This document shows, piece after piece, positions 42,441 to 63,495 of a stretch of 64,000 nt of DNA (the stretch's first letter is position 1; each line of letters begins with the position of its first letter). The notes under the pieces were generated by a model. That model was given only the letters and a program-made list of their open reading frames with translations, was not told the DNA's origin and ran no database searches. The position numbers and the translations under genes were made by a program. The DNA is taken from positions 992,867-1,056,866 of the forward strand of contig NZ_BMJA01000002.1 in assembly GCF_014642835.1 (NCBI RefSeq), written 5' to 3'. The stretch is from Dyella nitratireducens. GTDB taxonomy: Bacteria > Pseudomonadota > Gammaproteobacteria > Xanthomonadales > Rhodanobacteraceae.

Positions 42441-42496
42441 GGCGATCGGCTACGTGCTCCGAACAAAAATTTGCAGAGACATCACTGGGGAATTTG

Positions 42497-44944: not shown

Positions 44945-44979
44945 CGCTGCTTTTGCACTATCGATGGCAAGGCGTGCAG

Positions 44980-45005
44980 GGTCGCCGGCATGAGTGCCGG
45001 CGACC
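44980..45005 (+). terminator. Intergenic hairpin between receptor and GDPD
   Basis: GGTCGCCGGCA (44980-44990) pairs perfectly with TGCCGGCGACC (44995-45005) around TGAG. There is no T-run, so reading through into the GDPD gene is likely; the hairpin may stabilise the receptor message. Confidence 0.5.
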
Positions 45006-45042
45006 GGTTGCCGCGCTATGCTTTCTGCTATGGAGTTATGAC

Positions 45043-47325: not shown

Positions 47326-47360
47326 GGCGAAATCCTCGGGATGGGTAGCTGGAGAGTGAT

Positions 47361-47411
47361 TACACTGCACAGTGTAGTTTACATTCTAGGAAAAGTAAAC
47401 TGGTCAGTGTA
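47361..47411. promoter_or_regulatory. Double TetR operator
   Basis: TACACTG-CA-CAGTGTA (47361-47376) is a perfect 16-bp palindrome. A second copy, TAAACTG-GT-CAGTGTA (47396-47411), differs by one arm base and the centre. Between them GTTTAC (47377) and GTAAAC (47395) form another dyad. The sites lie between the divergent MBL and TetR genes and end 11 bp before the TetR start. Confidence 0.75.
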
Positions 47412-47421
47412 AAGTGCGCAC

Positions 47422-48042
47422 ATGCCCAGGCTTCCCACCTCATCTCCACGCCTTACCGAGCGCAAGCGCAGTGCGATCATCGACGCTGCCATCGACGAAT
47501 TTCGCGTTTCCGGTTACGAAACCACCAGCATGGACCGCATTGCCGCCCGTGCCGAGGTATCCAAGCGCACCGTCTATAACCATTTTCCCAGCAAGGAAGT
47601 TTTGTTCGCGGAGATCCTGCGTCATTTGTGGGACGCGATCGCAGGCGGTGAAGCCTTCGCTCATCACGCCGATCGCCCGTTGCGCGATCAATTGCTGGAG
47701 TTGGTAGCGCAGAAATTTCGTCTGCTCAATGACGAGGCGTTCGTATCGCTGGCCCGCGTCGCGATCGCCGCCGGCATCCATTCGTCCGAACTCGCGCTCG
47801 ACATGGTTGCGCGCATGAACGAGAAGGAAGAAGGGCTGACCGTCTGGATACGCGCAGCTGCCAAGGCCGGCCGGTTGAAGATCAAAGACCCTGTCTTTGC
47901 GTCCCATCAATTGGAATCGCTGATCAAGGGCTTTGCGTTCTGGCCGCAGATCACGCTGGCCCAACCACCGTTGGACGCCGCTACGCAAAAGAAGGTGGCG
48001 GAGTCGGCCGTGGATATGTTTTTGGGTTATTACGCTTTGTAG
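47422..48042 (+). CDS. TetR family transcriptional regulator
   Basis: This is 206 residues. The helix-turn-helix is at about 15-60 (RSAIIDAAIDEFRVSGYETT, MDRIAARAEVSKRTVYNHFP) and is followed by an all-helical ligand domain ending in a TetR_C-like segment (LESLIKGFAFWPQ). It is convergent with no gene and divergent from the MBL-fold gene, which it probably represses together with itself through the two palindromes. The ligand may be lipophilic. Confidence 0.9.
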   Translation: MPRLPTSSPRLTERKRSAIIDAAIDEFRVSGYETTSMDRIAARAEVSKRTVYNHFPSKEVLFAEILRHLWDAIAGGEAFAHHADRPLRDQLLELVAQKFRLLNDEAFVSLARVAIAAGIHSSELALDMVARMNEKEEGLTVWIRAAAKAGRLKIKDPVFASHQLESLIKGFAFWPQITLAQPPLDAATQKKVAESAVDMFLGYYAL

Positions 48043-48140
48043 ACTACATCCGCTACGCCGTTCGAGTGCCGCAGAGGGAGCGGCGCCAGACAGCCGCAAA
48101 TCGTGAATGCGCATTCTTCGAGCACGGGGAAGGTCGAGTG

Positions 48141-49871
48141 ATGGCGGATGGTACGAAGCATGGCCACATCGCTCAGCGGCCGTCAGCCGTGCGAGCTTTT
48201 GCATGCATGGCATGGATGGTGTGGGTGGCGTGCGTATCCAGTTGTGCATCGACAGGCGGGGGACATGCTTCCCGCGTTTCTGCCGAGGCGCTGCTCGAGC
48301 AGGCGCAGGCGAGGGAAGTGGAAGCCATCCGCGCACAATCGTCACAAGCCCAGGCCTATGCGTGGCTGCATTGCGCAACGCTGGCGCACGATGCCATGGC
48401 CGCCGAAAAAGCGGCGACCGAGACAGCGGCAGGGTTGCTCGCCACGCAGTGCAGTCGCGCCTTCTTCGATCTCATGGCACAAGGTGCGCCTATCGAAGTC
48501 ATGGCAGGACGATTGTCTCTCGGCGGTGTCACCATCCGCGTCGAATTCCGCGGCATGCCCGATAGCCTTGCCAGGAGCGTCTATCTGGAACCGGCCGACC
48601 AGGTATCGATGGATCCTCTGGATGGCGCTCGCCATCATCATGCCGGCTTTGGCGTGCCGCTCGTGGCGTTTTCCCTGCCGTGTTCCGATCGGCCGATCTG
48701 CCGTCTTTATCCGCCGGAGGGTGTTTTTCGACCGGCGACCCTGTGGCTGGAAACGCCGCTCGCCGCCGTTGCTCATGACGACACACCCGTGCTGGTGGTG
48801 CAGAACCCCGTGACCCAACCGGAGCATGTGGCGGGTGCCAATCGCTATACCCTTGCCGAGGACATGTCCGCGCCCTTCGCCCAATTGCTGGAGCGAACGC
48901 GCCTGAAGCGGCTGGCTTGGTGGGGCATGATCGGTGGTGCAGAAATAGGAAAGCGATCGGGTTTGTTTCTGCTGGATGACTACGATCCGAACAAGACCCC
49001 CATCATCATGATCCACGGTCTGGCCGGGAGCCCGCTGATCTGGGCGCGATTGAGCAATGCCATCATGGGCGATCCCGAACTTCATCGGCGCTACCAGATC
49101 TGGCACATCGTCTATCAGAGCAATGCACCGTTATTGGTGGAACGCTATCGCGTGCAGCATTACATCGATGAAGCCTGGCACGTTCTCGATCCGGGCAGTC
49201 ACGCACCGGCACGGCAGGGTGTTGTGCTGATCGGACACAGCATGGGGGGTGTGATTGCGCGACTGCTGTGCGCACAAAGTACGCCAGACGTATGGAACGC
49301 AGCGTTTACCGCGCCCATGGAGAGTCTGCACGCCGATGCGAACGATCTGGCCACGCTCAAGGACGTTTTCCAGTTCAAGCCGTACCCGGGTGTCGACGAG
49401 ATCATCTTCATGGCAGCGCCACAGCGCGGAAGCCCTTCAGCAGATGGATTGCTGGGGCGCCTGGTGGGACTGTTGGCATGGCGGCATATCGAAGAGATGG
49501 CTGGACTCGTGCGCATCGTGACCGAAAATCCGAAAGCCATCCAACCAGCGGTCGAGTCGATTTTTCAAACAGGCCACCTCACTAGCTTAACGAGCTTGCG
49601 ACCCGATGAGCCCGTGTCGCTCGCGGATGAGAAATTGATGCCTGCAGCCGGTGTGCGCTACGACACGATCGCCGGTGTTCTCCCGGGCGTCAAACCACCC
49701 GGAGATGGCTACGTGCCCTTGAGCAGCGCACTGTTTCCAGGTTCCGCGACAACGTTGATCGTTCACTCCGATCACAAGGTGCCAAATAATCCGGAGGCGA
49801 TTGCGGGCGTGCTGAAGATTCTGCGCGAGCACGGCAATTCGCATGATGTCGTGAGTAGTGAGACGCCTTAG
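48141..49871 (+). CDS. Lipoprotein with alpha/beta hydrolase domain
   Basis: This is 576 residues. The signal ends in a lipobox, VSSC with C35, so it is probably membrane-lipidated. The N-terminal third is a helical region without known motif. The hydrolase core has PIIMIHGLAGSPLIWA, the nucleophile GHSMGG, and SDHKVPNN for the histidine, like PGAP1/lipase-type enzymes. It is likely to act on esters in the envelope. The ATG at 48141 follows GGAAGG. It lies alone between a TetR gene and the next receptor gene. Confidence 0.85.
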   Translation: MADGTKHGHIAQRPSAVRAFACMAWMVWVACVSSCASTGGGHASRVSAEALLEQAQAREVEAIRAQSSQAQAYAWLHCATLAHDAMAAEKAATETAAGLLATQCSRAFFDLMAQGAPIEVMAGRLSLGGVTIRVEFRGMPDSLARSVYLEPADQVSMDPLDGARHHHAGFGVPLVAFSLPCSDRPICRLYPPEGVFRPATLWLETPLAAVAHDDTPVLVVQNPVTQPEHVAGANRYTLAEDMSAPFAQLLERTRLKRLAWWGMIGGAEIGKRSGLFLLDDYDPNKTPIIMIHGLAGSPLIWARLSNAIMGDPELHRRYQIWHIVYQSNAPLLVERYRVQHYIDEAWHVLDPGSHAPARQGVVLIGHSMGGVIARLLCAQSTPDVWNAAFTAPMESLHADANDLATLKDVFQFKPYPGVDEIIFMAAPQRGSPSADGLLGRLVGLLAWRHIEEMAGLVRIVTENPKAIQPAVESIFQTGHLTSLTSLRPDEPVSLADEKLMPAAGVRYDTIAGVLPGVKPPGDGYVPLSSALFPGSATTLIVHSDHKVPNNPEAIAGVLKILREHGNSHDVVSSETP

Positions 49872-50005: not shown

Positions 50006-52576
50006 TCAGAATTTGTACTTTGCCTGGAAATTAACTTCACGCCCTTCAATGGAACGCGCAAGGATCACACCACCCGTATTGGCAGCGCCAAGAATGCGGG
50101 CATTGCCTTCGGTCAAACCGATCTGGTTGGTGACATTCGTGCCTTGCAACGTGAACGCCCACTCCTTGCCAACGTTGGCGACAACGCCAAAGGCCAGATC
50201 GTAGTAATGCCCGAGCGGCTGGAGTTCCTGCTGGTCGCTGTAATGGCTGCCGATGTATTCGTAGGTCACCCACGCGGTCAACGAGCCCCAGCTGGTCGGG
50301 ATTTCATAAGATGGCGTCAGGCGCGCTTGGAAGGTTGGCTGGCGGGCCAGCTGGTAACCATTGAATTGGTTCGACTTGCTGCATACCACCTGGGTCGTTT
50401 CGCCTTGATAGGTGTAGCAACCGTTGCTGTGGGTGTATTGCGAATCCTGGTAGTTGCCGGACAGATTGATCGACAGGTGGTCGATCGGCTTGGCCGTGAC
50501 GTTGAAGTTCACGCCCTTGGATTGAGAACCATACACATAGGAAACCGTCTCCGTGGTATTGCCGACTGCCACGAGCAGGCTGGACGGAACGCCGCTGAAG
50601 AGCCGCCGAAAGGCCGAGATGTCGGCGTAGATCCAGTTCGCTTCATATTTGAAGCCGATCTCCATGTTGTGCATCTTTTCGACCGGCGTGTTCGGCAGCG
50701 TGGCCAGGTCGGTGAACGAGGGGAAGTGCACGCCATCGCTCAAGCGGGCGTAAGCGCTCATGTGTTCATCGAATGCGTAGTTGGCGCCGATCGTCCATGA
50801 TGGTGCGGTTTTTCCGTAGCGGATGGCCGTGCTGCCGGGAACCAGGTAGCGGGATTTGTTGTTGTACAGCGTATAAGGGTTGTCATCCAGATCACCCGTC
50901 GCGACATTGCCGAGCGATGCGCGCAGATGCTGATATTCATCACGAATGCCTGCATCGAAAAGCCAGTTGTCGAGTTTCCAGGTGTCGCTCAAGAAGAACG
51001 CGGTGTTGAAACCCGTCCCCGGGATACGCTGGGCGGTCGTCGGACCGGTGGTGAAACCCTGCGGGCTGGCCACTTGCCACGTCTGCGTGCCGTTGGTCAA
51101 CGAGACAGCGATGGGCGTTGGATTGTTCTTGGCTTGCAGAAGTATGTCGCTACCTTGGATGGCCAATTCATTCGAGTTGTAACCCACGGTGTAATTGCCA
51201 AGCGTCAGAGTGTTGCCTTCGAACAGCTCCTTGTTGACGTGAAACTCGTTGCTGACGGCATGGAATTTCTGCTGGACGTAACGCAGTTCCTGCGTGACGA
51301 CGTTCTGGCTCATCGACGCCTGGCCACCCGTGGTATAGGTCGCGTTGGCCGTCAAACCTGCGGGCAGATGGTTGGCGGATTCCGCGTTGGCGATAAACGT
51401 GGAAAGCGGCAGCGGGTTGGTACCGGTGCTGTAGAACGCAACCATGTTCTCGGTGCCGCCGTTGACGCCCAGCTTGTCCGAGATCGTCCAGCCGTTGCCG
51501 AAATCCCAATCGAAATTGGCGCCTGTCAGATAGGCATCCGGTCCACGACCATTGGCCATGTTCACGGCGATGCCACCCGGAGTGCAGCCTTTCGTAAAAC
51601 AGGGTGTCGTCTGCAAGAACTCGTATTGATCGGCTTTACTTCCCATGGTGCCGGTCAGCGGGCTGAAACCGGGATAGTTGGAGAACTGGCCGCGGCTGGG
51701 ATTGAGAATGGGCGTATCCGTTACGAACTGGTTCTTGTCGTTGATGTAGCGGGCAAAGAACATCAGTGAGCCGCTATCCCAGTCGCGCGTGAGCGTTGCC
51801 GTGATCTGGCCGCCGTCATCGGCGAGATATTCCGGATTGCGCACGCCCGAAGACTGCCGATAGAAACCGCCGACGCTTCCATACCAGTTGCTGTTCTTGC
51901 TGAGCGGAAAACCGACAAAGCCATCCAGCCGGACAAGGTCTTCCGAACCGATCGTCATCCCGACGTCGCCGGAGGTGACATCGGTACCTTGTTTGAGAAT
52001 GAAGTTGCCGAACAAGCCGGGCTGCGCCGAGCCATACAGCACGGCCGGGCCGCCTTGCACCAGCTCCGCGCGCTCGATCGTGTCATCCAGGCGCAGCAGC
52101 GAAGCCTGCTCCAGATACGCCAATCCCGACATCGGATAGAAAGGCACGCCTTGCAGGCCGAGGGTGACATAGGGCGACTGACCGCTGCCCGGAAAGCCTG
52201 CCACTTCGATATTTGCACCCGTTTGACCACCGGATGATTCGACGTGCACACCGGGCGACGCCTTGAGCAAGTCATTCGCGCTGGTGGTGTTGGCCTGGCT
52301 GATTTGATCCGCCGTCAACGTGGTGATCGAGTAGCTGGCATCAAGCTTCTTGACGCCCGTGATGGACGCATTGCCTGTGACCACAACCTGGTCGAGGCTC
52401 TTTGTGTTGGCGTCAGCGTTCGACGGGGCGCGTGATTTTGCTTTGACGTTGTCTGTCGTGGGCGATATGGTGGATGTCGAGATGTTGTCCTGGGCGAAAG
52501 CCGGGCCAACGGTGGCAAGAATCGACGCAGCTAGCAAAGTGCGTGGAAGCAGTGACGGGGCAGTACGCCGTGTCAT
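50006..52576 (-). CDS. TonB-dependent outer-membrane receptor
   Basis: This is 856 residues with a signal peptide (LLPRTLLAASILATVGPAFA). The plug has LDQVVVTGNASITGVKKLDA, TTSANDLLKASPGVHVESSG and ERAELVQGGPAVLYGSAQPG; a large barrel follows and ends EVNFQAKYKF. The receptor lies behind the GDPD-pectinesterase gene on the same strand, with a hairpin in the 70-bp gap. The neighbour's activity suggests it takes up a pectin- or phosphodiester-derived ligand. Confidence 0.93.
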   Translation of the reverse strand: MTRRTAPSLLPRTLLAASILATVGPAFAQDNISTSTISPTTDNVKAKSRAPSNADANTKSLDQVVVTGNASITGVKKLDASYSITTLTADQISQANTTSANDLLKASPGVHVESSGGQTGANIEVAGFPGSGQSPYVTLGLQGVPFYPMSGLAYLEQASLLRLDDTIERAELVQGGPAVLYGSAQPGLFGNFILKQGTDVTSGDVGMTIGSEDLVRLDGFVGFPLSKNSNWYGSVGGFYRQSSGVRNPEYLADDGGQITATLTRDWDSGSLMFFARYINDKNQFVTDTPILNPSRGQFSNYPGFSPLTGTMGSKADQYEFLQTTPCFTKGCTPGGIAVNMANGRGPDAYLTGANFDWDFGNGWTISDKLGVNGGTENMVAFYSTGTNPLPLSTFIANAESANHLPAGLTANATYTTGGQASMSQNVVTQELRYVQQKFHAVSNEFHVNKELFEGNTLTLGNYTVGYNSNELAIQGSDILLQAKNNPTPIAVSLTNGTQTWQVASPQGFTTGPTTAQRIPGTGFNTAFFLSDTWKLDNWLFDAGIRDEYQHLRASLGNVATGDLDDNPYTLYNNKSRYLVPGSTAIRYGKTAPSWTIGANYAFDEHMSAYARLSDGVHFPSFTDLATLPNTPVEKMHNMEIGFKYEANWIYADISAFRRLFSGVPSSLLVAVGNTTETVSYVYGSQSKGVNFNVTAKPIDHLSINLSGNYQDSQYTHSNGCYTYQGETTQVVCSKSNQFNGYQLARQPTFQARLTPSYEIPTSWGSLTAWVTYEYIGSHYSDQQELQPLGHYYDLAFGVVANVGKEWAFTLQGTNVTNQIGLTEGNARILGAANTGGVILARSIEGREVNFQAKYKF

Positions 52577-52610: not shown

Positions 52611-52640
52611 AAGGCCCCTCCCCATGAGAGGAGGGGCCTT
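52611..52640. terminator. Intergenic hairpin before the TonB receptor
   Basis: AAGGCCCCTC (52611-52620) pairs perfectly with GAGGGGCCTT (52631-52640) around a 10-nt loop. It lies 7 bp after the fusion gene's stop (minus strand) and 35 bp before the receptor gene. The minus-strand side has few Ts, so partial read-through is plausible. Confidence 0.55.
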
Positions 52641-52646
52641 CTTTCA

Positions 52647-55600
52647 TTACGGTTTGGTCGTAAATGACGTGATGACGGTTGGGCTGTAGTAACCGTTGTA
52701 GGCCTTCAACGAGACCCAGTAGGTGGTATTGCGCTGCAGGTTGTTGAAGGTCCAGCTGTTGGTGGTGAAGCCGTTGCTGGTACCTGCCAGAGCTTTGCCT
52801 GCGTATGCATCCGCCTGACTGGCGTAGAGCGCGGTGTACACACCTGCGTGTGCAACGGTGCCGCCGAATACCGGTTGGATACCTTGGTCGGCAATGGTGA
52901 AGGTGACGGTTGCACTGGTGGAGGCAGTGCTCACCTGCACGTTGCTCGGTGCACTCGGATCGTGCGACACCGGCGTCACCGACGTGGACACGGACGGCGC
53001 GCTGGAACCTTGAGCATTGAACTCACGCACCGTCACGGTAGCCGGTACGCCATTGGCGAGGCCATCGATGTAGCCGCTCGATGCGCTGGGCGGCAAGGAG
53101 ACCGGGCCAAACGTTTTGCCATTCTGCGTGGCGGTGAGGGTATAGCCTTGTTCCACCGGATTGGCCGGCTGCCCCGCCCAGGTCACTTGCACGTTACCGT
53201 TGCCAGCCACGGTGGCAGTGATGACGGGTGATGCAGGTATGCCTGCAGTAGGTGTTGGTAGCGGCAGGGTCTGGTTCGAATTGTCGCCGGAATACACCAC
53301 CGTGGTCGGTTGCCAGTTGTCGCTACCTGCCAAATAGGTATTCGGTGCCAGTGCATCGGCTTCTGCCGAAGTGAGCGAAACATTGCTGCTGGGCGAGGTG
53401 CTTTCGCGCTGGCTCAGATCGAACAGTGCCCAGTTGCCGCTGGCATCCGGGTAATACGAGTCGTACTCGCGATACGTGGAGGTCGGCAGGTTGTTGGTAC
53501 CACCTTGCGAGAGCGGCAACGGGATGAATTCGATCCAGCCTTGCGGCACCACCTCGGGACCCATCTTGGTGTTGATGAAATACGTGGTGGCATACGCGCC
53601 CCACGGACGGCCCAGCCACACGTTGCTCATGTACGGGCTGTCGAACAGCAGCTGCGAATTGCTGATTACGAAGCCGCTGTCTTCGGTGGTGCTGGCGCGG
53701 TTTTGCGCCGTGATGGTGGCTTCCTGAGTGAGGTCGCCATGCACCTTGGTCTTGATGATGCAGTTATCGAACACGGCCTTGCCGTTGCCGAAGATGTAGT
53801 CCACGTAGCCTTCGACATAGCTGTTGTTGAAATAGGCGCGCTTGTCATTGCCCAGATAAAGCGAGTCCTGGCCGCCCAGCACGCGCACGGCGCGGAACAC
53901 GGCGCGGTCGCCCACCGAGAACAACGCCACGGCCTGGTTGTTGTTCTGGAAGTTGGGTGCTTCGTAATCGGCGTTGTTTTGGATAGTGAGGTTGGCGGCG
54001 TAGAAGTTGTCGCCGCTCACCTTCACCGTGTAGCTGCCGCCGGTGCCCAATTGCTTGCCGGTGGCATCGGTCTTGGCCGCGTAGTCGTCGTTGATGATCA
54101 GCACCTGCGAGGCATCTTTGCCCGTGCCGATCAGCTCTACATTGGCCTGCGTAATGTTGACCTTTTCGTGGTAGGTGCCCGGGCGAATCAGGATTTCCGC
54201 TCCCGTGGCAGGCACGGCAGCGAGTGCGGCGTTGATGGTCTTGTAGGTGCCGCTGCCGTCGGCAGCCACCACCAGTGCCGGTCCTCCCGAGTGAATCACT
54301 ACATTGCAAAGCGGGTTGGTCGCCGGACACGTGTTGGTGCCAGGGCGTTGACCGCTGAATTGCATCAGGTATTGGATGGTCTGTGTCGGCAGATCGGTGA
54401 TGATGAAGCCGAAGCGTGCTTCGTCATGCCAGAACTCGCGGAAGGGGCGATGATCGGTGCAGCCTTCGCCATCACGCGAGAACTGCGTGGTGCTGGCCGA
54501 TCCGCATTCGTTGGGGTTCATGGGCGGAGACAGCGGACCGCAGATGCCGCCTTCCCAATACGTGCCCATGGAGCCTGCGAGGTTGGCGTTGCTGGCGCTC
54601 GGTTCGGAGACCGTGCAAAGCTGTTCGGGAATGTAGGCGCCGATGTTTCTGCCGGATTGCCACAGCTCGGTATACATATCATCGTTATCGTTCAAGCTGG
54701 CCTTGAACGCTTTGAGACTGGCTTCTGGCGACAGTACGTTGTTATTGCCGTCGACCCAGTTGATCCAGGATGAGTAATCGTTCGTGGCATAGTTGGTGTT
54801 GCCGGCGCTTTCTTTGTTGGCAACACCGTTGGAGGTGTACACCGGCATGATGTAGAGCTGGGCGAGCTCGGATTCGGTCAGCGATCCGCCATAGGTCGTC
54901 TGATAGAAGTTGGCGGTGGCTTGATAGAAATCTTCAGGTCCATTGAACAATATCGTCTGGAACTTGAGCACGACATGTCCGGCGACCCATTTGCCGTAGT
55001 TGTCGTTGATGATCATTTTGTTGGCGAGCATGGCGGCCACGTCGCGAACATTGTTGGTTTCTCTCAAATCCAGAAAAACCAGGCCCTGGTAACCGTCGTT
55101 GAACAGCTCCTGCATGGTGTCATCGAGCGAGGCCGGATAGATATTGAAGCTGTTGCAGGAAGGGTAGTTGACCGTGTCGCCGTATCCATCATTGCCTGCG
55201 CAGATCGGCGTATTGCTGATGTCGCTCCAGGTGGGCGTTTTCACCGAAGCATCGTTGCTTTCCCGCTGCCAGCGATAGATGTCTGCATACTCGGGACGAT
55301 GGAGCATGCGCTTCAGCGTTTGGTCGTGCATCAGGTAAGGCACCAGATCGCTGGTTTCATAAACATCGAGCTCCACGCTCTCGATGCCCGCGTTCATGGT
55401 GTTGACCGTGGCTTCCTTGGTGTTTTCGGGATGCGATGAATCCACCACACCACGATGCGCGGCAATGATGATCGGTTCGCTGTCGTAGGCAGAGAGCTCA
55501 AGCGCGCCGCCCTTCATGCGGAACTGCAGCAGCTGGATCAAGGCGCCCGTGAGGTCTGGATCGGTCAGGTTGTAGTAACCCGGGGAACTGACGATCGTGC

Positions 55601-55736
55601 CGGTGCCCGTCGTGGGATTGACGGTAACGGTGGACTGCGCCTGTGCGTGGGTGGAAATCACCAGGCCGGCTGCGATGGTTGCCAGGGCCTGGCCAATCAA
55701 CTGCGTACTGCGCTTGCGTTTGAACGAGTGCTTCAC
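52647..55736 (-). CDS. Secreted fusion: GDPD, pectin methylesterase and FN3 domains
   Basis: This is 1029 residues from the GTG at 55736, with GAAGGA upstream, and a signal peptide (IGQALATIAAGLVISTHAQA). A GDPD domain at about 88-460 has AAHRG (H94), ENTKEA, ELDVYETSD, MHDQ and IITDLP. A pectinesterase domain at about 485-805 has VVAADGSGTYKTINAALAAV, GQDSLYLGN, YVEGYVDYIFGNG (catalytic aspartates) and WLGRPWGAYA. Two fibronectin-III-like domains follow to the end (PVITATVAGNGNVQVTWAGQ and PSNVQVSTASTSATVTFTIA). The frame to 55907 is not homologous. It would de-esterify pectin and cleave a phosphodiester outside the cell. This domain pairing is unusual. Confidence 0.92.
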   Translation of the reverse strand: MKHSFKRKRSTQLIGQALATIAAGLVISTHAQAQSTVTVNPTTGTGTIVSSPGYYNLTDPDLTGALIQLLQFRMKGGALELSAYDSEPIIIAAHRGVVDSSHPENTKEATVNTMNAGIESVELDVYETSDLVPYLMHDQTLKRMLHRPEYADIYRWQRESNDASVKTPTWSDISNTPICAGNDGYGDTVNYPSCNSFNIYPASLDDTMQELFNDGYQGLVFLDLRETNNVRDVAAMLANKMIINDNYGKWVAGHVVLKFQTILFNGPEDFYQATANFYQTTYGGSLTESELAQLYIMPVYTSNGVANKESAGNTNYATNDYSSWINWVDGNNNVLSPEASLKAFKASLNDNDDMYTELWQSGRNIGAYIPEQLCTVSEPSASNANLAGSMGTYWEGGICGPLSPPMNPNECGSASTTQFSRDGEGCTDHRPFREFWHDEARFGFIITDLPTQTIQYLMQFSGQRPGTNTCPATNPLCNVVIHSGGPALVVAADGSGTYKTINAALAAVPATGAEILIRPGTYHEKVNITQANVELIGTGKDASQVLIINDDYAAKTDATGKQLGTGGSYTVKVSGDNFYAANLTIQNNADYEAPNFQNNNQAVALFSVGDRAVFRAVRVLGGQDSLYLGNDKRAYFNNSYVEGYVDYIFGNGKAVFDNCIIKTKVHGDLTQEATITAQNRASTTEDSGFVISNSQLLFDSPYMSNVWLGRPWGAYATTYFINTKMGPEVVPQGWIEFIPLPLSQGGTNNLPTSTYREYDSYYPDASGNWALFDLSQRESTSPSSNVSLTSAEADALAPNTYLAGSDNWQPTTVVYSGDNSNQTLPLPTPTAGIPASPVITATVAGNGNVQVTWAGQPANPVEQGYTLTATQNGKTFGPVSLPPSASSGYIDGLANGVPATVTVREFNAQGSSAPSVSTSVTPVSHDPSAPSNVQVSTASTSATVTFTIADQGIQPVFGGTVAHAGVYTALYASQADAYAGKALAGTSNGFTTNSWTFNNLQRNTTYWVSLKAYNGYYSPTVITSFTTKP

Positions 55737-55947
55737 GGTAAAGATTCCTTCTATTCGCAGGTGGTTCGATGGGCTGGTGGGGAAGGCATGGGTAAAACGG
55801 GGCACGCAGACGCCCGCATCGGCGCAAGGCGTCGAAATTCGATTACGAGTGGATATCCCTGTCTTAGTGTTATCCGGTGACTCCGGCTGCCCCCTCTGAG
55901 TCACCATTCAATGCGCTTGTGCTTGGTACGGAATAAACGCAGTCGGT

Positions 55948-57114
55948 TTATTCGAACAATCGCTCCTTCAGTGGAACCAATGCAGCGCCGATCGCGGATG
56001 CGTCGCCGTTGGTTTCTGCCAAGACCAGCTTGGGCCGGTCAGGGCCCACGCCGTAACGATGAATATCCAGAAAGCGCACGCGGTCGATCAGCATGCGACC
56101 GAGTGCCAGCGGCAATTGCCCACCGAATACGATCGCTTCCGGATCGAACAGGCCGGCCAGCGCATTGACGGTACGGTTCAAGGCCGGTAGCGTGCTCTGT
56201 ATCCAGAGTTCCACGCCCGGCCAGGTGGGATCGAAACGCTGGCGCAAATCCTCCACCGAATCGACGTGCACGCCGTGCATGCGAAGCTCATCCATCAGTG
56301 ATCGAAGCGTGGGACGATGCCCGGCTTCCTCCGACGTGAACAACGTAAGCTCGCCGGCATTGCCATGTGTGCCGAATAGCGGCTTGCCATTGAGCACGAC
56401 GCCGGCGCCGAAGCCGTAGTTGAAAGCGAGGTAGGCAAAGTTCTGCGCCCACAATCCCGCACCCAGCAGGCTTTCGCCGATAGCGGCGGTGGTGGCGTTG
56501 TTCTCCAGCCATACCGGCAGATGGAATGCTTCTTCCAGGATGGGTACCAGATCGACCAGCGACCAGTCCTGTAAAGGCTCGGCTGCATTCACTTGGCTGC
56601 GGCCGGCAACGAAGAAGCCGGCAATCGCCACGCCAACGCCGATCAAGCGTTCGCGCGCCACGCCATTGCGTGCGAGGATGCGTTCGAGCGCATCGTTGAT
56701 GGCCGCGAGGGAAGCTTTTCGATGCGTGGGCGGCGTGCGGATGCACACCTCTTCAAGGAGGTTGCAGCCCAGGTCGGCCAGGCACAGCGTGATGGAATCG
56801 GTGTTGATGGAAATGCCCACGGTGTAGGCGGCTTCGCGCACCAGTTCGATGCGTGGACTGGGTTGGCCGCGTCCGTTGCGCACGACAGCACCGGCGCGCA
56901 ACAAGCCGCGCTCGATCAGCTGTTCCACCAGGCGATGCACGGACTGCTGGGCCAGATCGGTCTCGGCAACGATGGCCGCACGGGCAATCGAGCCGTGGCG
57001 ACGCACGATGTTGAGAATCAGGCGCTCGCTGGGCGCCAGCATCAGGCTGCCTGCGCGCCTTGGTTGGGCCTGTTTGGATACTGCTTTGCCGGTGGCTTTC
57101 TTCTTGGTGCTCAT
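55948..57114 (-). CDS. ROK family transcriptional repressor
   Basis: This is 388 residues. A winged helix (ILNIVRRHGSIARAAIVAET, DLAQQSVHRLVEQLIERGL) precedes a ROK sugar-kinase-like domain: VGISINTDSITLCLADL, VGVAIAGF, VWLENNATTAAIGESLLGAG and GFGAGVVLNGKPLFGTHGNA, then GE. The zinc cysteine motif of true ROK kinases is absent, as in sugar-sensing repressors. It lies between the fusion gene and the ABC importer and is the obvious regulator of either or both. A sugar or sugar phosphate is the likely inducer. Confidence 0.9.
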   Translation of the reverse strand: MSTKKKATGKAVSKQAQPRRAGSLMLAPSERLILNIVRRHGSIARAAIVAETDLAQQSVHRLVEQLIERGLLRAGAVVRNGRGQPSPRIELVREAAYTVGISINTDSITLCLADLGCNLLEEVCIRTPPTHRKASLAAINDALERILARNGVARERLIGVGVAIAGFFVAGRSQVNAAEPLQDWSLVDLVPILEEAFHLPVWLENNATTAAIGESLLGAGLWAQNFAYLAFNYGFGAGVVLNGKPLFGTHGNAGELTLFTSEEAGHRPTLRSLMDELRMHGVHVDSVEDLRQRFDPTWPGVELWIQSTLPALNRTVNALAGLFDPEAIVFGGQLPLALGRMLIDRVRFLDIHRYGVGPDRPKLVLAETNGDASAIGAALVPLKERLFE

Positions 57115-57262: not shown

Positions 57263-58345
57263 TCATACCTGTCTACCCTTAAACGTGTGCTCAATCCGTT
57301 CCCCGTTGGCGGCGTGGAACCAGGAAATCGCTTGCGGTGGAAAACCCAGGCATACCGTTTCGTTCGGTATCAACGCACGCCGACCATGATCGATGGCCAG
57401 GACAGGTTGCTGCCCGATGCGGGTGTAGATCACGCGATGGCTGCCGAGATCTTCCACCGCTTCCACCTTGGCAGCGACGCCGTCGGTTGCACCAAGCTCG
57501 ACGGCTTCCGGACGAATGCCAATCTTCACTGCAGTGGGCTTGTCCGTGCGCACATTCGCACGCAAGGTTCCACCACCATCGATTGCCACATCTTCACCCG
57601 CATGCGTCGCCGTCAACACATTCATCGGCGGGGTGCCGATAAAACCAGCTACGAAAATGCTACGCGGTCGGTGATAAAGCGCCATCGGCGTATCAGCTTG
57701 CTCAACTTGGCCTTGGTTAAGCAGTACTACACGGTCGGCCAGTGTCATCGCCTCAACCTGATCGTGCGTGACGAAAATGGTGGTGGCGCCGATCTCGTTA
57801 TGCAGCCGGCGCAATTCCATGCGCATCTCATGGCGCAGCTTGGCATCGAGATTCGACAGCGGTTCGTCGAACAGCAGCACACGCTGGCGGCGCGCAATAG
57901 CGCGGCCGATGGCCACGCGTTGACGCTGGCCGCCCGACAGTTGCGCCGGTTTGCGCTCGAGCAAGTCGCGCAATCCCAGCAGTTCCGCAGCTTCGCCGAT
58001 GCGGCGTTCGCGTTCCGCGCGCTCCAGCCCCGCCAGCTTGAGCGCATAGCCGATGTTGTCGCGCACGCTCATGTGCGGGTACAGCGCGTAATTCTGGAAC
58101 ACCATGGCACAGCCACGGCTTTGCGGCGGTGTGCGTGTCACGTCGACGCCGCCAATGCTTACCGTGCCTTGATCGGCTTCTTCCAGCCCGGCGATCACCC
58201 GGAGCAGGGTGGATTTACCGCAACCGGATGGGCCTAGCACCACGGTGAACTGGCCGGCGGCAAAGTCGATGTCGAGCTGGTCCATGATCGTGCGCTGGCC
58301 GAAACGCTTGGACAAGCCGCGTACCTGTATCGCCGTGCCGCTCAT
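57263..58345 (-). CDS. ABC importer ATPase (UgpC/MsmK type)
   Basis: This is 360 residues. The nucleotide-binding domain has VVLGPSGCGKSTLLR (Walker A), LSGGQRQRVAIGRAIAR (signature), LLFDEPLSNLDAKLR (Walker B) and VTHDQVEAMTLADR (His switch). The C-terminal TOBE-like regulatory domain (IGIRPEAVELG) marks the carbohydrate/UgpC group. It starts inside the stop of the preceding permease gene (ATGA). It is the last gene of the importer operon. Confidence 0.93.
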   Translation of the reverse strand: MSGTAIQVRGLSKRFGQRTIMDQLDIDFAAGQFTVVLGPSGCGKSTLLRVIAGLEEADQGTVSIGGVDVTRTPPQSRGCAMVFQNYALYPHMSVRDNIGYALKLAGLERAERERRIGEAAELLGLRDLLERKPAQLSGGQRQRVAIGRAIARRQRVLLFDEPLSNLDAKLRHEMRMELRRLHNEIGATTIFVTHDQVEAMTLADRVVLLNQGQVEQADTPMALYHRPRSIFVAGFIGTPPMNVLTATHAGEDVAIDGGGTLRANVRTDKPTAVKIGIRPEAVELGATDGVAAKVEAVEDLGSHRVIYTRIGQQPVLAIDHGRRALIPNETVCLGFPPQAISWFHAANGERIEHTFKGRQV

Positions 58346-59238
58346 TTGCCCACTCCGGTGATGCCGCGCACGAACCAGCGTTGCGTCAGCCCTATCACCA
58401 CCAGCGGTGGCGCCAACGCGATCAATGCTGCCGCCATCACCAGATTCCATTCCGGCGGCTGGCCGGTTTCGGTCGGCAGGAAGGTCGAAATGCCGAGCGC
58501 CATGGTGCGCATCTCGGGCCGGCTGGTGGCGACGAGAGGCCACATGTAGTCCTTCCAGGTGGTGAGAAAAACGATGGTGCCGAGTGCGGCGAAATTTGCT
58601 TTCGACAGGGGCAGCAAGATGTCGATGAAGAAGCGCAGTGGACCGGCGCCGTCCATGCGCGCCGCTTCAGATAGTTCCGTCGGCACGGTGAGATAGAACT
58701 GGCGGAACAGGAAGGTGCCGGTGGCCGAGGCCATCAGCGGCAGCGATAGGCCGGCATAGCTATCCAGCAAGTTGAGCGATACGTGCAGTTGCAAGCCGGT
58801 CATGGCAAGCAGAAGGGTGTGCAGCGGCTCGAACAGATCGGAGGCGACGGCATATGTCGGCACGATGCGCACTTCCAGCGGCAGCAGCAGGGTGATGAAG
58901 GTGCCCCAGAAGACGATGTGGCGAATGCGCGAGCGGAAATACACCGCAGCAAACGCACTGGTGGAGGCCAGTGCCAGTTTGCCCGCCACCACAATCAGCG
59001 ATACCACGCAGCTGTTGAGCAGCATATGGCCGACGTCCGCACGATGCAGCACGGCGCTCAGGTTCTCCCCAAGATGTGAGCTCGGCAGCAACGCCAAGCC
59101 ATGCACCAGAATCTGTTGGCTCGTCGCCGAGGCCGAGCACAGCGCGAGATAGATCGGCCCAAGTGCGAATACCAAGCTCAATGCCAGCAAGGTCAGCGTC
59201 ATGGCTTTCAGCAGAGGGTGACGTTCGACCATGCTCAC
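58342..59238 (-). CDS. Carbohydrate/glycerophosphate ABC permease (UgpE type)
   Basis: This is 298 residues with six hydrophobic segments and the EAA loop SEAARMDGAGPLRFFIDILL, then PLSKA. It is a MalG/UgpE-type membrane subunit. The GTG at 59238 is chosen because it gives a 4-bp GTGA overlap with the upstream permease stop, as at all the other junctions of this operon; the ATG at 59232 is the alternative. The ATPase gene overlaps its stop. Confidence 0.92.
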   Translation of the reverse strand: MSMVERHPLLKAMTLTLLALSLVFALGPIYLALCSASATSQQILVHGLALLPSSHLGENLSAVLHRADVGHMLLNSCVVSLIVVAGKLALASTSAFAAVYFRSRIRHIVFWGTFITLLLPLEVRIVPTYAVASDLFEPLHTLLLAMTGLQLHVSLNLLDSYAGLSLPLMASATGTFLFRQFYLTVPTELSEAARMDGAGPLRFFIDILLPLSKANFAALGTIVFLTTWKDYMWPLVATSRPEMRTMALGISTFLPTETGQPPEWNLVMAAALIALAPPLVVIGLTQRWFVRGITGVGK

Positions 59239-60122
59239 GCCTCCCGCTTCGCCTGGCGTTCGAACACCACGAACTGCACCGCACTGGCGGCCAGCACCAG
59301 CAGCATCAGCAATATCGACAATGCCGAAGAACCCGATAGATCCAGGCCGATAAAGCCATCGCGATAGATCTTGTACGCCAGGATGTTGGTGGCGCCGCCG
59401 GGACCGCCCTGCGTCATGGTGTCGACGATGGCAAAGCTGTTGGTGATGGAATCGATCAAGTTCATCGTCGCCACGAAGAACAGTTGCGGCCGAATCATCG
59501 GAATCTGGATATCGATGAAGCGGCGCAGCGGGCCGGCGCCATCGATCGCGGCGGCAGCCATGTAGTCGGCGGGAATCGAGCGCAGCGCCGCCACCAGCAC
59601 GATGAAGTCGAACGGGATTTGCGTCCATGCGAAGGCGAACACCACCATCGTCATGGCCTGCGTGCCGTTCAAATGCGGTTGCCAGAAGCCTGGCCACACG
59701 CTGTTGAGGTAACCCATCAGGCCGATGCTGGGGCTGGATGCAACCCGCAGGATTACACCCAGCACGGAGCCGGCCACCGCATAGGGCCAGATCAGCAGAT
59801 AGCGGAAGAGCCTACCGCTGCGTTGGTGCAGTTCCACCATCCAGGCCAGCACCAGCGCGACGATCACGGACGCGCCTACGCCAAACAGCGAAAACACGGC
59901 CGTACTGAACAGCGACGCGTAGAAGTTGGCATCTTTCAGTTCGCGCAGATAGTTGTCGAAGCCGACGAAGCTGGAGCAATGGCCGAACGGGCACACCAGG
60001 TGAAACGACCACCAAAGCCCCTTGAGCGTGGGCCAATAGAAGAACAATGCAATCAACGCCAGCTGCGGCAAGCCCAGCGCAAACGGTGTCCAGCGGCCGT
60101 GGAAGCGCGCGCTCGTTTTCAT
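59235..60122 (-). CDS. Carbohydrate/glycerophosphate ABC permease (UgpA type)
   Basis: This is 295 residues with six hydrophobic spans and the EAA loop AAAAIDGAGPLRRFIDIQIP. The N-terminal LGLPQLALIALFFYWPTLKG is the MalF/UgpA-type opening. It overlaps the solute-binding-protein stop by four bases (ATGA). Together with the next permease it forms the membrane channel of the importer. Confidence 0.93.
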   Translation of the reverse strand: MKTSARFHGRWTPFALGLPQLALIALFFYWPTLKGLWWSFHLVCPFGHCSSFVGFDNYLRELKDANFYASLFSTAVFSLFGVGASVIVALVLAWMVELHQRSGRLFRYLLIWPYAVAGSVLGVILRVASSPSIGLMGYLNSVWPGFWQPHLNGTQAMTMVVFAFAWTQIPFDFIVLVAALRSIPADYMAAAAIDGAGPLRRFIDIQIPMIRPQLFFVATMNLIDSITNSFAIVDTMTQGGPGGATNILAYKIYRDGFIGLDLSGSSALSILLMLLVLAASAVQFVVFERQAKREA

Positions 60123-61447
60123 GGCGCGCCTGCTGTCGAAGCGCGATAAGTCGCCTGGAAACGTTCCAGCAAAAGATTGCCGCGCGCCTGCGCGTTTATA
60201 AGCGCGTCGTCCATGCTTTCGCGGCCGGCCAGGGCGCGTTGCACTTCCTCTTGCCAGATCAGGCGGAACAGCGACATGAAACCGAGCCGCACGCCGGCGT
60301 TGTATGGATTGCCGGGCAGGGCCATCGAAGCCAGTCCCACGCGAATCGCATCCGGTTCCGTGGAGGGTGAGCTGGCAAGTTTTTGTTCGGCGTTATGCGT
60401 CAGCGGTAGATAGCCGGTGCGCGCGGAGAAAAACAGCTGCTGTTGGGGTTCGCGCAAATAGGCGAGGAAGCGTGCCACTGCAGAATAAACGGCAGGCGTC
60501 TCGCCCTTGAATACCCACAGCGATGAACCGCCGATCGTATTACCGTAGCGCGTGGTGCCGGCGTACACCGGCAAGGGACCGACTTCGGCATCGACCATGC
60601 CGGCCTTGGCCACGATGGCATAAGCGCCGGTGGCATCGATCACCATGGCGCATTCGCCATCGGCAAAGGCCAGGGTTTGATCGTTGGCATGCGTCAGGAT
60701 GGCGGGCAGCAGCAGGCCTTGCGCATGCCAACGCAGCACGTCGCGCATGTAGCGCAGATGGATACCATCGGCAAAGTCATAACGCGCTGCAAGGCCATCG
60801 TGTCCGTTGTTTGCGCTGGCGATCGGTGCGCCTTGCACGGCGTTGATCTGCTCCAGCATTTTCCATGGCGTGTAGTCGGCCACGGCGGGGCAGCTTTCGC
60901 CGTGCGCCTTGAGTGCTTGCAGTGCCTGGCCGAACGCTTCCCACGTCTGCGGCAGTTCGTTGATGCCGGCCGCGGCAAGTTTCTTGCGATTGGCGTATAG
61001 CACCAGGGTGGACGTGCCGAAGGGTTGCGAGAGCAGGCGTCCGTCCGGCGTGGCGTAGAAGCGGCGGATGCTGTCCAGATAGTCAGCATCATCGGTGGGA
61101 TGGCCGGTGTCCTTCATCAGTGCATCCACGGGATAGATGGCGCCGCTGCGCATCATGTCCGCGGTGCCGATGTCGTAGATCTCCACCACGGCGGGTTGCT
61201 GGTCCGCGCGATAGGCAGCCACGGCCTTGCGCATGGTCTGCTCGTAGGTGCCCTGCGGCAAACAGCGCACGTGATCTTGCGGATAGGTTTTGTTGAAGCC
61301 TGCACACAACTCGTTGATGGTTTGCGCATAGAGGCCGCCATGCGCGTACCAAAATTCAAAGGCTGCCGCACGGCCGATCGCTGGTATGGCGGCCACGCAA
61401 GCCGACAACATCCAGGCAAACCACAGGCCGGCGGCGCGCAAGGTCAT
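60119..61447 (-). CDS. ABC solute-binding protein (UgpB-like)
   Basis: This is 442 residues with a signal peptide (WFAWMLSACVAAIPAIGRAA). The family-1 binding fold has FEFWYAHGGLYAQTINELCA, YPQDHVRCLPQGTYEQTMRK, DIGTADMMRSGAIYPVDALM and a GNTIGGSSLWVFKG sugar-binding loop. The GTYEQ and SSLWVF blocks recall UgpB, the glycerol-3-phosphate binder. The ligand is therefore likely glycerol-3-phosphate, a glycerophosphodiester or a related sugar. Start and stop overlap its neighbours by four bases. Confidence 0.92.
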   Translation of the reverse strand: MTLRAAGLWFAWMLSACVAAIPAIGRAAAFEFWYAHGGLYAQTINELCAGFNKTYPQDHVRCLPQGTYEQTMRKAVAAYRADQQPAVVEIYDIGTADMMRSGAIYPVDALMKDTGHPTDDADYLDSIRRFYATPDGRLLSQPFGTSTLVLYANRKKLAAAGINELPQTWEAFGQALQALKAHGESCPAVADYTPWKMLEQINAVQGAPIASANNGHDGLAARYDFADGIHLRYMRDVLRWHAQGLLLPAILTHANDQTLAFADGECAMVIDATGAYAIVAKAGMVDAEVGPLPVYAGTTRYGNTIGGSSLWVFKGETPAVYSAVARFLAYLREPQQQLFFSARTGYLPLTHNAEQKLASSPSTEPDAIRVGLASMALPGNPYNAGVRLGFMSLFRLIWQEEVQRALAGRESMDDALINAQARGNLLLERFQATYRASTAGAP

Positions 61448-62163
61448 GCCATGCGTTCCTGATGGCGGAGGAGGAGCAGATTGTCGAACGCCTGCATGTC
61501 GATAAACGTGCAGAACTCCGGTGCGCCGAGCGTGATGATGCCCACCGGCGACACCAGCTCGGTGTAAAGCTTGCTGTGGAAGGTCAGGATTCGCTTCACC
61601 GTTTCCAGACTCATTGCCTTGATGAGATAGGAATGCGTCATGTGGAACGTGTAGTTGTCGTGCCAGGGCGCACGAAACCCCAAATGTGCGGCGAGGCGAT
61701 CGCGCAGATCGCGTAGCTTGCGCGCTTCCTCGGCATTCGCGGGTACCAGGGACATGGCGCCGATCATCAATTGCTGGTCGGGCTCGGCGAGTTTCATGCG
61801 CAGCGGCAACTCGCAACCCAGATCGAACACCCGCAGTTTGTCGGCCATATGACGTGTGCATGCGGTCAGCGTCACGTTGAGCGGCAGTTCCGCCGGCCAG
61901 CGCTCGCGGGTGCGCTCCTGGTCGGTGACGCCCTCGAATACCGTCATGTGATAGCTCTCCGGCGGCAACGTCGCGAAAGCTTCGGCGTAGGGGCCGGTCT
62001 TGATCTGATCGCGCACCGCGGTAAGTGCAGTCGACAGCGGTGTGAACAGCGGTACGTGACAGATCAGCGTATTGCCGGGGAAACGCAGCACATTGCCGTG
62101 CGCGTCGAATTTTTGATCAAGGTGACTGAGTGGCTGGTGATATTTGCTGAGCATGGTTGGCAT
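61444..62163 (-). CDS. 2H phosphodiesterase-like protein (DUF1868 family)
   Basis: This is 239 residues from the ATG at 62163, without signal peptide. It carries two HxT motifs, HMT at 72-74 (SYHMTVFEGV) and HMT at 174-176 (TFHMTHSYLI), about 100 residues apart. This is the active-site pair of 2H phosphoesterases, which open 2',3'-cyclic or other phosphodiesters. DUF1868 is my recollection of its family. It is the first gene of the importer operon and overlaps ugpB-like by four bases, so it probably cleaves the imported compound. Confidence 0.8.
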   Translation of the reverse strand: MPTMLSKYHQPLSHLDQKFDAHGNVLRFPGNTLICHVPLFTPLSTALTAVRDQIKTGPYAEAFATLPPESYHMTVFEGVTDQERTRERWPAELPLNVTLTACTRHMADKLRVFDLGCELPLRMKLAEPDQQLMIGAMSLVPANAEEARKLRDLRDRLAAHLGFRAPWHDNYTFHMTHSYLIKAMSLETVKRILTFHSKLYTELVSPVGIITLGAPEFCTFIDMQAFDNLLLLRHQERMA

Positions 62164-62499: not shown

Positions 62500-63495
62500 A
62501 TGGCTTTTCGCCTCGACGATCGTTGGGTATGGGATTTCTGGTTTGCGCAGGAGGGCGGGCGTACGCATCTGTTCTTTCTGCAGGCCCCCAAGTCGTTGGG
62601 CGATCCCAACAAGCGCCACTGGCACGTATCGATTGGGCACGCCGTATCCGAAGACCTGATGAACTGGGTGGAAGTGGAAGAGGCGCTGCGTCCGGTGGCA
62701 TCACCGGCGTGGGACGACTACACCACCTGGACCGGCACGGTCGTGCGGGCGCCGCAAGGACACTGGCTGATGTTCTACACCGGCACCAGCCGCGCAGAAG
62801 AAGGATTGGTCCAGCGCATTGGCCTGGCTTCCTCGCCGGATCTGTATCGTTGGGAACGCTCTTCCCGCAATCCCATACTGCAATTGCCGGACAACACGCT
62901 TTACGAAACGCTCGACAGAAGCGTGTGGTACGAACAGGCCTGCCGCGATCCGTGGGTATTCCCCGATCCCGATGGCCGTGGCTGGCACATGGTTTTCACG
63001 GCGCGCGAGCCGAACGGGCCGAGCGTCGGCCGCGGTGTCATCGGTCATGCCACGTCGGATGACATGCATCAATGGACGCTGCAACCGCCGCTGTTTCGTT
63101 CGCGCGTGTTTGCACATCTGGAAGTGCCACAGATTTTCGAATGGCAAGGACGCTGGTATTGCCTGTTCTGCACGGCCGCAAATTTGATTGATAGTGACTA
63201 CGCCAGCGCAGCCATGTCGCAGCCTATGACCGGCACGCACTACCTGATGGCGGATCATCCGCTGGGCGAATGGCATTTGATGCCGGGCGATTTTCTGGTG
63301 GGTGATCCGCTGGGGAAACTTTATGCAGGACGCGTAATCCCCGCGCGCGATGGCTCGCTGTGCTTCATGGCGTTTCTGAAGAATGAAGAGCAGGGCGGGT
63401 TCGTGGGTGAGCTTTCCGATCCCTTGCCGATGATCGTGCACGAGGACGGAACGCTGTACGTCGACGCGTCGTCTTATGGCCTATCGGCGGGCTAG
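62500..63495 (+). CDS. Five-bladed beta-propeller glycoside hydrolase (GH32/GH43/GH68-like)
   Basis: This 331-residue protein has the propeller-clan active-site order: WVWDFWFAQ with the nucleophile-type aspartate near residue 11, RDPWVFPDPDGRGWHMVFTA with the RDP aspartate, and LEVPQIFEW with the acid-type glutamate. It has no signal peptide, so it would act in the cytoplasm on an imported glycoside. It is divergent from the importer operon, with shared upstream sites. Its exact family and linkage are not clear. Confidence 0.82.
   Translation: MAFRLDDRWVWDFWFAQEGGRTHLFFLQAPKSLGDPNKRHWHVSIGHAVSEDLMNWVEVEEALRPVASPAWDDYTTWTGTVVRAPQGHWLMFYTGTSRAEEGLVQRIGLASSPDLYRWERSSRNPILQLPDNTLYETLDRSVWYEQACRDPWVFPDPDGRGWHMVFTAREPNGPSVGRGVIGHATSDDMHQWTLQPPLFRSRVFAHLEVPQIFEWQGRWYCLFCTAANLIDSDYASAAMSQPMTGTHYLMADHPLGEWHLMPGDFLVGDPLGKLYAGRVIPARDGSLCFMAFLKNEEQGGFVGELSDPLPMIVHEDGTLYVDASSYGLSAG

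What the first reader, a model, noticed from the sequence alone, without database searches (positions are those of the whole stretch)
52647..55736. GDPD, pectin methylesterase and FN3 domains in one secreted protein
Sequence shows complete active-site motifs of two unrelated esterases in one signal-peptide-bearing chain: HRG/ELDVY/MHD of GDPD and GQDSLY/VDYIFG/LGRPWG of pectinesterase, then two FN3-like domains. From family knowledge, GDPD cleaves glycerophosphodiesters and pectinesterase removes methyl esters from homogalacturonan. Inference: the enzyme attacks a polymer that carries both methyl-esterified uronic acids and phosphodiesters, or it opens pectin to reach a phospholipid-derived substrate.
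Basis: partly seen in the sequence, partly recalled or inferred. Interest (0 to 1): 0.72.

Follow-up and report, generated by a model that had tools for sequence, protein, structure and literature searches.

The report
Phosphodiesterase–pectinesterase fusion in phosphodiester-uptake operon
A secreted bacterial protein joins a phosphodiester-cutting enzyme to a pectin-type esterase, and its gene sits in an operon that looks made for importing and digesting a phosphate-containing compound, which hints at a little-known way for soil bacteria to feed on plant-derived material.

Summary
One minus-strand gene (55736-52647, 1029 aa, Dyella) carries a GDPD domain, a CE8 pectinesterase domain and two FN3 domains, catalytic motifs intact. 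It is no assembly join: five species from two phyla have the same architecture. It is rare: 2 of 16 genomes of the genus, 3 of 299 of the order sample. On two Rhizobium plasmids the same pectinesterase type follows a separate GDPD gene by 34 bases.

Three relatives keep 2H-Ugp-ROK and add an inositol-monophosphatase-family gene; in one of them a stand-alone GDPD replaces the fusion. In four of the five family genomes with this 2H type, a TonB receptor lies just before or one gene before it, as in the xanthosan (xan) locus.

Best reading: an exported enzyme releasing a phosphorylated compound for this importer, GDPD being the core and pectinesterase the accessory. Substrate and activities are untested; predicted structures were unusable. 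One carrier lacks GH28 and PL1 matches, which weakens a plain pectin role. New variant of known kinds.

The parts
52647..55736 (-). GDPD-pectinesterase-FN3-FN3 fusion protein, 1029 aa, GTG start, signal-peptide-like start
54360..55475 (-). GDPD region, about residues 88-459 (Pfam match itself 94-182; barrel extent inferred)
   Evidence: Pfam; profile comparison; conserved residues
53442..54275 (-). CE8 pectinesterase domain, residues 488-765
   Evidence: Pfam; PDB matches; tree
52650..53246 (-). two FN3-like domains, about residues 831-1029
   Evidence: Pfam (two stretches; only the best, 928-1016, is placed by the output, the first is inferred)
61444..62154 (-). 2H-phosphodiesterase (PF08975, DUF1868), two HxT motifs; superfamily of XanP
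60119..61447 (-). UgpB-like substrate-binding protein
59235..60122 (-). UgpA-like permease
58342..59232 (-). UgpE-like permease
57263..58345 (-). UgpC-like ATPase
55948..57114 (-). ROK-family transcriptional regulator
55737..55950 (-). stretch between ROK and fusion, part of it conserved in D. acidisoli and Rhodanobacter A1T4; candidate operator/promoter (inferred)
50006..52576 (-). TonB-dependent receptor downstream of the fusion, with a hairpin at 52611-52640 in between (flagged as terminator-like for the + strand only)
62500..63495 (+). divergent GH32/68-like glycosidase, also beside the operon in Rhodanobacter A1T4 and G053

Best explanation
The fusion is an exported enzyme that serves a ROK-regulated uptake-and-breakdown operon for a phosphate-containing compound. 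Its GDPD domain cuts phosphodiester bonds outside the cytoplasm. The small phosphorylated product (a glycerophosphodiester, sugar phosphodiester or sugar phosphate) passes a TonB receptor and is taken up through the UgpBAEC-like importer. In the cytoplasm the 2H-phosphodiesterase splits any remaining (perhaps cyclic) phosphodiester, and in relatives an inositol-monophosphatase-family enzyme removes the phosphate. The pectinesterase domain takes methyl esters off uronic-acid material around or within the substrate, and the FN3 domains act as spacers or binding modules. Shown by sequence: the domains, their catalytic residues, the gene order and its conservation. Inferred: export, co-regulation, direction of flow, and every activity.
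For: Domains and residues. Gene order in the window 2H-UgpB-A-E-C-ROK-fusion-TonB receptor; the genes from 2H to UgpC overlap by 4 bases or lie 2 bases apart. The same order from 2H to the fusion, with an added inositol-monophosphatase-family gene before ROK, in D. acidisoli and Rhodanobacter A1T4. In G053 the same operon, also with that gene, ends in a stand-alone GDPD instead of the fusion, so the GDPD is the constant part. In Paenibacillus P25 a 2H gene and two permeases precede the fusion. On Rhizobium plasmids a GDPD gene ends 34 bases before pectinesterase-FN3-FN3, beside ROK and ABC genes and a 98-aa inositol-monophosphatase-family gene. Relatives of the window 2H protein occur at E up to 1e-8 in only 5 of 197 family genomes, the two fusion carriers of that sample among them. 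All five keep it with a TonB receptor, ROK or GDPD gene close by: receptor then 2H in D. acidisoli, G053 and G061, receptor-GDPD-2H and receptor-ROK-2H in G133, while the window has its receptor at the far end. The binding protein keeps 6 of 9 UgpB ligand residues.
Against: No activity was measured. All four transporter subunits fall below the NCBIfam Ugp cut-offs, and the binding protein has E88D, W188Y and S266A. In G359 the fusion sits with a sigma factor, FecR and a TonB receptor; that genome gave no 2H match and the 20 kb taken showed no Ugp-like gene. The window's receptor is not beside the fusion in D. acidisoli (closest homologue on another contig), and its closest match beside a fusion elsewhere is only 27% (G359). 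A hairpin lies between fusion and receptor in the window. The fusion starts 211 bases after ROK, so it may have its own promoter. No Pho-box above chance was found, so phosphate-starvation control is unsupported.
Confidence: 0.55

Rival explanations
1. Plain glycerophosphodiester scavenging: the GDPD domain works like GlpQ/UgpQ on deacylated phospholipids, giving glycerol-3-phosphate for Ugp, while the pectinesterase merely loosens plant cell wall so that the enzyme reaches membranes.
For: All four importer subunits match Ugp models best; 6 of 9 ligand residues of UgpB are kept; the window also holds a TonB receptor plus GlpQ-type GDPD pair at 42416-46146.
Against: Three binding-pocket positions are changed; a 2H-phosphodiesterase and a phosphatase are not needed for glycerol-3-phosphate (inference); a GDPD that scores much higher against Pfam (140.3 bits against 40.2) lies nearby; the fused GDPD has only weak profile similarity to it (probability 13.6%).
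Confidence: 0.2
2. Teichoic-acid or envelope-polymer attack: the GDPD domain cuts phosphodiesters of wall teichoic acid and the esterase acts on a bacterial surface polysaccharide, as proposed for phage tail lysins, feeding the importer with glycerol phosphate.
For: A survey of enterococcal phage lysins assigns GDPD domains to teichoic acids and pectinesterase domains to a surface polysaccharide (PMC10194240, passages).
Against: In the passages seen, the seven pectinesterase proteins had no other predicted domain and the three GDPD architectures did not include pectinesterase; of 5 phage records with a match none covers 80% of the fusion; a Paenibacillus, of a Gram-positive phylum, carries it too.
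Confidence: 0.1
3. Generic pectin degradation: the pectinesterase is the working part and the GDPD domain is a decayed or accessory passenger.
For: GH28 over cut-off in 4 of the 5 fusion carriers and PL1 in 3 of 5; a pectate lyase-like gene lies 5-6 kb from the fusion in D. acidisoli.
Against: GDPD catalytic residues are the same in 5 of 5 fusions across two phyla; Rhodanobacter A1T4 gave neither GH28 nor PL1 matches and the window genome no PL1 match (other pectinase families were not searched); the conserved operon has phosphodiester-type genes and exists in G053 with a GDPD but no fused pectinesterase.
Confidence: 0.12

Closest known systems
Ugp system (UgpBAEC importer with GDPD UgpQ; UgpQ link recalled)
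   Same: UgpB/A/E/C-like importer linked to a GDPD domain; 6 of 9 ligand residues of the binding protein kept
   Different: GDPD carries a signal-peptide-like start and is fused to a pectinesterase; ROK regulator, 2H-phosphodiesterase, and a phosphatase-family gene in relatives; all subunits below the NCBIfam cut-offs
xanR-xanT-xanP xanthosan utilisation (Xanthomonas; PMC12807533, abstract, passages, sections 6, 8 and 11 seen)
   Same: ROK regulator, TonB receptor and 2H-phosphodiesterase in one neighbourhood, with a GDPD-fold enzyme; in D. acidisoli, G053 and G061 a receptor gene directly precedes the 2H gene
   Different: An ABC importer is part of the operon; in the window the receptor is at the other end from 2H; the 2H proteins found in 5 of 13 genomes asked, all of one sister-family genus, are 27-29% identical and the best matches to the window receptor lie elsewhere there; the fusion scores 25.2 bits against a 1000-bit AvrBs2 cut-off
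Agrocinopine catabolism (acc: ABC importer, phosphodiesterase AccF, phosphatase AccG; PMC4526662, passages seen)
   Same: ABC importer plus phosphodiesterase plus phosphatase for a sugar phosphodiester (relatives of the window operon)
   Different: Orthology of the parts was not tested; the GDPD here appears exported and is fused; ROK regulator and 2H enzyme added
CE8 pectin methylesterases (PemA, plant and rumen PMEs)
   Same: Pectinesterase family and catalytic Q/D/D/R/W
   Different: Own clade with a long stem (100/100, length 0.98); GDPD partner; 130.6 bits against a 700-bit PemA cut-off

Membership tests
GDPD (PF03009) | profile score above Pfam cut-off | tested here: met
   40.2 bits, cut-off 23.6
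GDPD (PF03009) | catalytic His pair and metal ligands | tested here: met
   H94, E122, D124, H137 the same in 5 of 5; third ligand read as D223, Asp instead of the usual Glu (recalled), supported by alignment with another GDPD
GDPD (PF03009) | whole TIM barrel | tested here: inconclusive
   Pfam covers 1-74 of 244; profile comparison reaches the strand with D223 and the next one; predicted models unusable, pLDDT 36.5 and 35.7
GDPD (PF03009) | hydrolysis of glycerophosphodiesters | not testable with these tools
   needs assay
CE8 pectinesterase (PF01095) | profile score above Pfam cut-off and catalytic residues | tested here: met
   176.1 bits, cut-off 27; six residues the same in 7 of 7
CE8 pectinesterase, PemA equivalog (NF041896) | curated cut-off 700 bits | tested here: not met
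   130.6 bits
Ugp glycerol-3-phosphate system | subunits above NCBIfam cut-offs | tested here: not met
   251.5/411, 254.2/335, 266.8/297, 431.2/432 bits (run on ORFs longer than the genes for three of the four)
Ugp glycerol-3-phosphate system | nine ligand residues of UgpB | tested here: inconclusive
   6 of 9 identical; E88D, W188Y, S266A
xanRTP system | ROK, TonB receptor and 2H-phosphodiesterase present together | tested here: met
xanRTP system | TonB receptor gene directly next to the 2H gene | tested here: not met
   not in the window (opposite ends of the cluster), though met in D. acidisoli, G053 and G061
xanRTP system | orthology to xanT and xanP | tested here: inconclusive
   27-29% 2H matches in five sister-family genomes; best matches to the window receptor on another contig in four and about 1.3-3.2 Mb away in the single-contig one; the genus was not named and XanP itself was not compared
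AvrBs2-type synthetase (NF041304) | curated cut-off 1000 bits | tested here: not met
   25.2 bits over residues 93-149 only
acc agrocinopine system | orthologues of AccF and AccG | not tested
   only the kinds of parts were compared

The most novel reading that the evidence does not exclude
The operon is a third nutrition system for a phosphodiester-linked sugar compound, besides agrocinopine and xanthosan, with the phosphodiester attached to or embedded in methyl-esterified uronic-acid material of plants (for example inositol-phosphoceramide head groups bearing glucuronic acid near pectin; recalled chemistry, no call). The GDPD domain would release a small, possibly cyclic, phosphodiester that the 2H enzyme opens inside the cell. 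If so, the fusion is a direct link between GDPD-type enzymes and pectin.
Probability: 0.22. Interest if true: 0.85.

Novelty: new variant of a known kind. Interest (0 to 1): 0.6.

Why it matters
If the reading is right, soil and plant-associated bacteria share genes for cutting, importing and digesting a phosphodiester that comes with uronic-acid polymers, and nature has fused two of the enzymes involved. The fusion and the Rhizobium gene pair give a concrete way to find that compound. They might also give plant biologists a lead on why GDPD-like proteins matter in plant walls (SHV3/SVL1, whose role in signalling a 2022 review calls unclear; PMC9412048, passages; a tie of those proteins to pectin is recalled, not looked up).

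Tried and rejected
Assembly join or frameshift: rejected, five genomes carry the joint. Pho-box control: 5 matches against 4.87 expected in the window, none of them upstream of the operon. Structure prediction of the GDPD domain and of the whole protein with four sequences each: finished, but pLDDT 36.5 and 35.7, so no fold search was run and the strand pattern is not used. The first scan of genome contigs with the single protein gave 16 candidate stretches and no relative. The second, with an alignment, used only two peptide patterns, both from the GDPD part, and gave 3 loci of 62 stretches, one of them D. acidisoli again; one search scored at most 2 candidates a genome and at most 4. The five species are therefore a lower bound. 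Phage origin: 5 phage records match, in the pectinesterase part only. GDPD domain alone in 398 phylum genomes: 67 match, the window's own among them, best other 3.3e-8 over 72 residues, so no close stand-alone relative was found there. Orthology with the xan genes: not supported, though the receptor-2H layout recurs in relatives. Literature: searches (1 paper; 28, 20 listed; 5; 32, 8 listed) were searched with terms for both enzymes or for the operon parts; no listed title is about such a fusion, only a few papers were opened, and most subscription papers are not in the library. The term DUF1868 gave no paper.
Full report
What is there. A single gene on the minus strand, 55736 to 52647, encodes 1029 residues without a stop. 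Pfam finds GDPD at 94-182, Pectinesterase at 488-765 and fn3 with two stretches, the best at 928-1016. The start looks like a signal peptide by eye; no predictor was run. In the five known fusions the GDPD residues H94, R95, E122, D124, H137 and D223 are the same (5 of 5), and the pectinesterase residues Q601, Q623, D624, D646, R710 and W712 are the same in the 7 of 7 clade members aligned. The pectinesterase residues correspond in kind to the catalytic Asp, Asp, Arg and the Gln and Trp named for PmeC5 (PMC12109409, passages); the residue-by-residue mapping rests on family knowledge. D223 as third metal ligand is an inference from motif position and from a profile alignment in which it meets the Asp of another GDPD (E 2.8e-7); that an Asp there departs from the usual Glu is recalled.

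It is not an artefact. The P25 copy changes frame in the later part of the pectinesterase and in the FN3 part in that assembly, but the GDPD-pectinesterase joint lies in one frame. Spread: 2 of 16 genomes of the genus, 2 of 197 of the family sample, 3 of 299 of the order sample, 1 of 25 of the P25 genus sample, namely P25 itself. No plasmid record (0 of 50 with any match) and no phage record (0 of 5) holds 80% of it. A rare gene found in two phyla at 57-74% identity suggests horizontal transfer; I did not test that formally.

The pectinesterase part is a clade of its own. In a tree of 32 rows the five fused pectinesterases, the Rhizobium one and a stand-alone one from G068 form one group (100/100, stem 0.98); the fusions alone are not shown to be a single branch. 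On two Rhizobium plasmids the pectinesterase-FN3-FN3 protein has another N-terminal part of about 360 residues with no Pfam match at E up to 0.001, and a separate GDPD gene ends 34 bases before it, with ROK, ABC-transporter, isomerase and short phosphatase-family genes alongside. So the same partnership exists by fusion and by adjacency.

The operon. From 62154 down to 55948 the window reads: 2H-phosphodiesterase (PF08975, E 2.2e-35), then proteins whose best NCBIfam models are UgpB, UgpA, UgpE and UgpC, then a ROK regulator; the fusion follows after 211 bases, and then a TonB receptor, with a hairpin in between that the scan flags as terminator-like for the other strand only. D. acidisoli and Rhodanobacter A1T4 keep the order from 2H to the fusion and add an inositol-monophosphatase-family gene before ROK. 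G053 has the same operon with that gene, but after ROK comes a stand-alone GDPD of up to 435 residues. P25 has a 2H gene and two permeases upstream of the fusion and a LacI-type regulator after it. G359 differs: sigma factor, FecR, fusion, TonB receptor, no 2H match in that genome and no Ugp-like gene in the 20 kb taken. A GH32/68-like gene lies beside the operon in the window, A1T4 and G053. A stretch of the gap before the fusion is well conserved among three of these genomes and may be an operator.

A wider pattern. Relatives of the window 2H protein at E up to 1e-8 were found in 5 of 197 family genomes. In D. acidisoli and G053 a TonB receptor gene (78% identical to each other, not the window's type) directly precedes 2H; in G061 a receptor 68-69% identical to the window's precedes 2H, with a ROK gene on the other side; in G133 one 2H gene follows a receptor and a GDPD-like stretch, and a second follows a receptor and a ROK gene (the G133 genes were seen by translated matches only). 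This is the set of parts described for the xan locus.

How it may work. XanP, the 2H enzyme of Xanthomonas, splits a cyclic sugar phosphodiester; its gene shares a transcript with a TonB receptor gene and lies near a ROK gene (PMC12807533). Agrobacterium imports agrocinopine by an ABC system and uses a phosphodiesterase and a phosphatase (PMC4526662, passages). The window operon has the same kinds of parts plus an apparently exported GDPD. The two HxT motifs of the window 2H protein lie 102 residues apart (105 in XanP by its residue numbers). The binding protein matches E. coli UgpB (E 2.8e-62) and keeps 6 of 9 ligand residues listed for a marine UgpB (PMC12718374, passages), with E88 to Asp, W188 to Tyr and S266 to Ala. 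That fits a phosphate-bearing ligand with a tail unlike glycerol-3-phosphate; it does not prove it. I therefore take the fusion to be the exported enzyme that makes this importer's ligand.

Limits and results against. No subunit reaches its NCBIfam Ugp cut-off. The xan parallel is one of kind, and descent is not shown: 2H relatives in 5 of 13 chosen genomes are 27-29% identical, and the best matches to the window receptor lie elsewhere in those genomes. A pectin target is uncertain: GH28 is over cut-off in 5 of 9 and PL1 in 4 of 9 genomes searched; of the five fusion carriers four have GH28 and three PL1, while A1T4 has neither. Other pectinase families were not searched. In A1T4 the next gene is an alginate-lyase-like protein with a LamG domain, so some uronic-acid polymer remains plausible. 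Both predicted structures were unusable.

Verdict. The paper searches listed no title about this fusion (partly capped lists). I rate it a new variant of known kinds, interest 0.6.

Noticed in passing
window 42416-46146 (+): A second TonB receptor directly followed by a GlpQ-type GDPD (PRK11143 best, below its cut-off), so two GDPD genes lie within about 11 kb.
   Followed up: partly
window 46252-49868: Metallo-beta-lactamase-fold hydrolase (Lactamase_B_2), a regulator with weak RutR/ScbR/BetI similarity and an alpha/beta hydrolase between the two GDPD genes; perhaps a lipid-head-group neighbourhood (guess).
   Followed up: no
window 22284-24848 and 34483-38088 (-): GH2 beta-galactosidase-like protein and a hybrid two-component regulator with Reg_prop and Y_Y_Y domains.
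   Followed up: no
L080 4723-9782 (G061): ROK gene, TonB receptor (68-69% to the window's) and 2H-phosphodiesterase in a row, the layout described for xanR-xanT-xanP.
   Followed up: partly
L078 7626-12084 and L081 3752-8399 (G133): Two further 2H genes, one after a TonB receptor and a GDPD-like stretch, one after a TonB receptor and a ROK gene.
   Followed up: partly
L054 10885-11949: About 360-residue N-terminal region of the Rhizobium pectinesterase with no Pfam match.
   Followed up: no
window 55737-55950 with L030 9787-10000 and L036 9784-10000: Conserved block before the fusion gene in three genomes, with gaps that are not multiples of three; candidate ROK operator.
   Followed up: partly
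L038 11952-12950: The Paenibacillus P25 copy changes reading frame in its later part in that assembly; whether this is real or a sequencing error is open.
   Followed up: no
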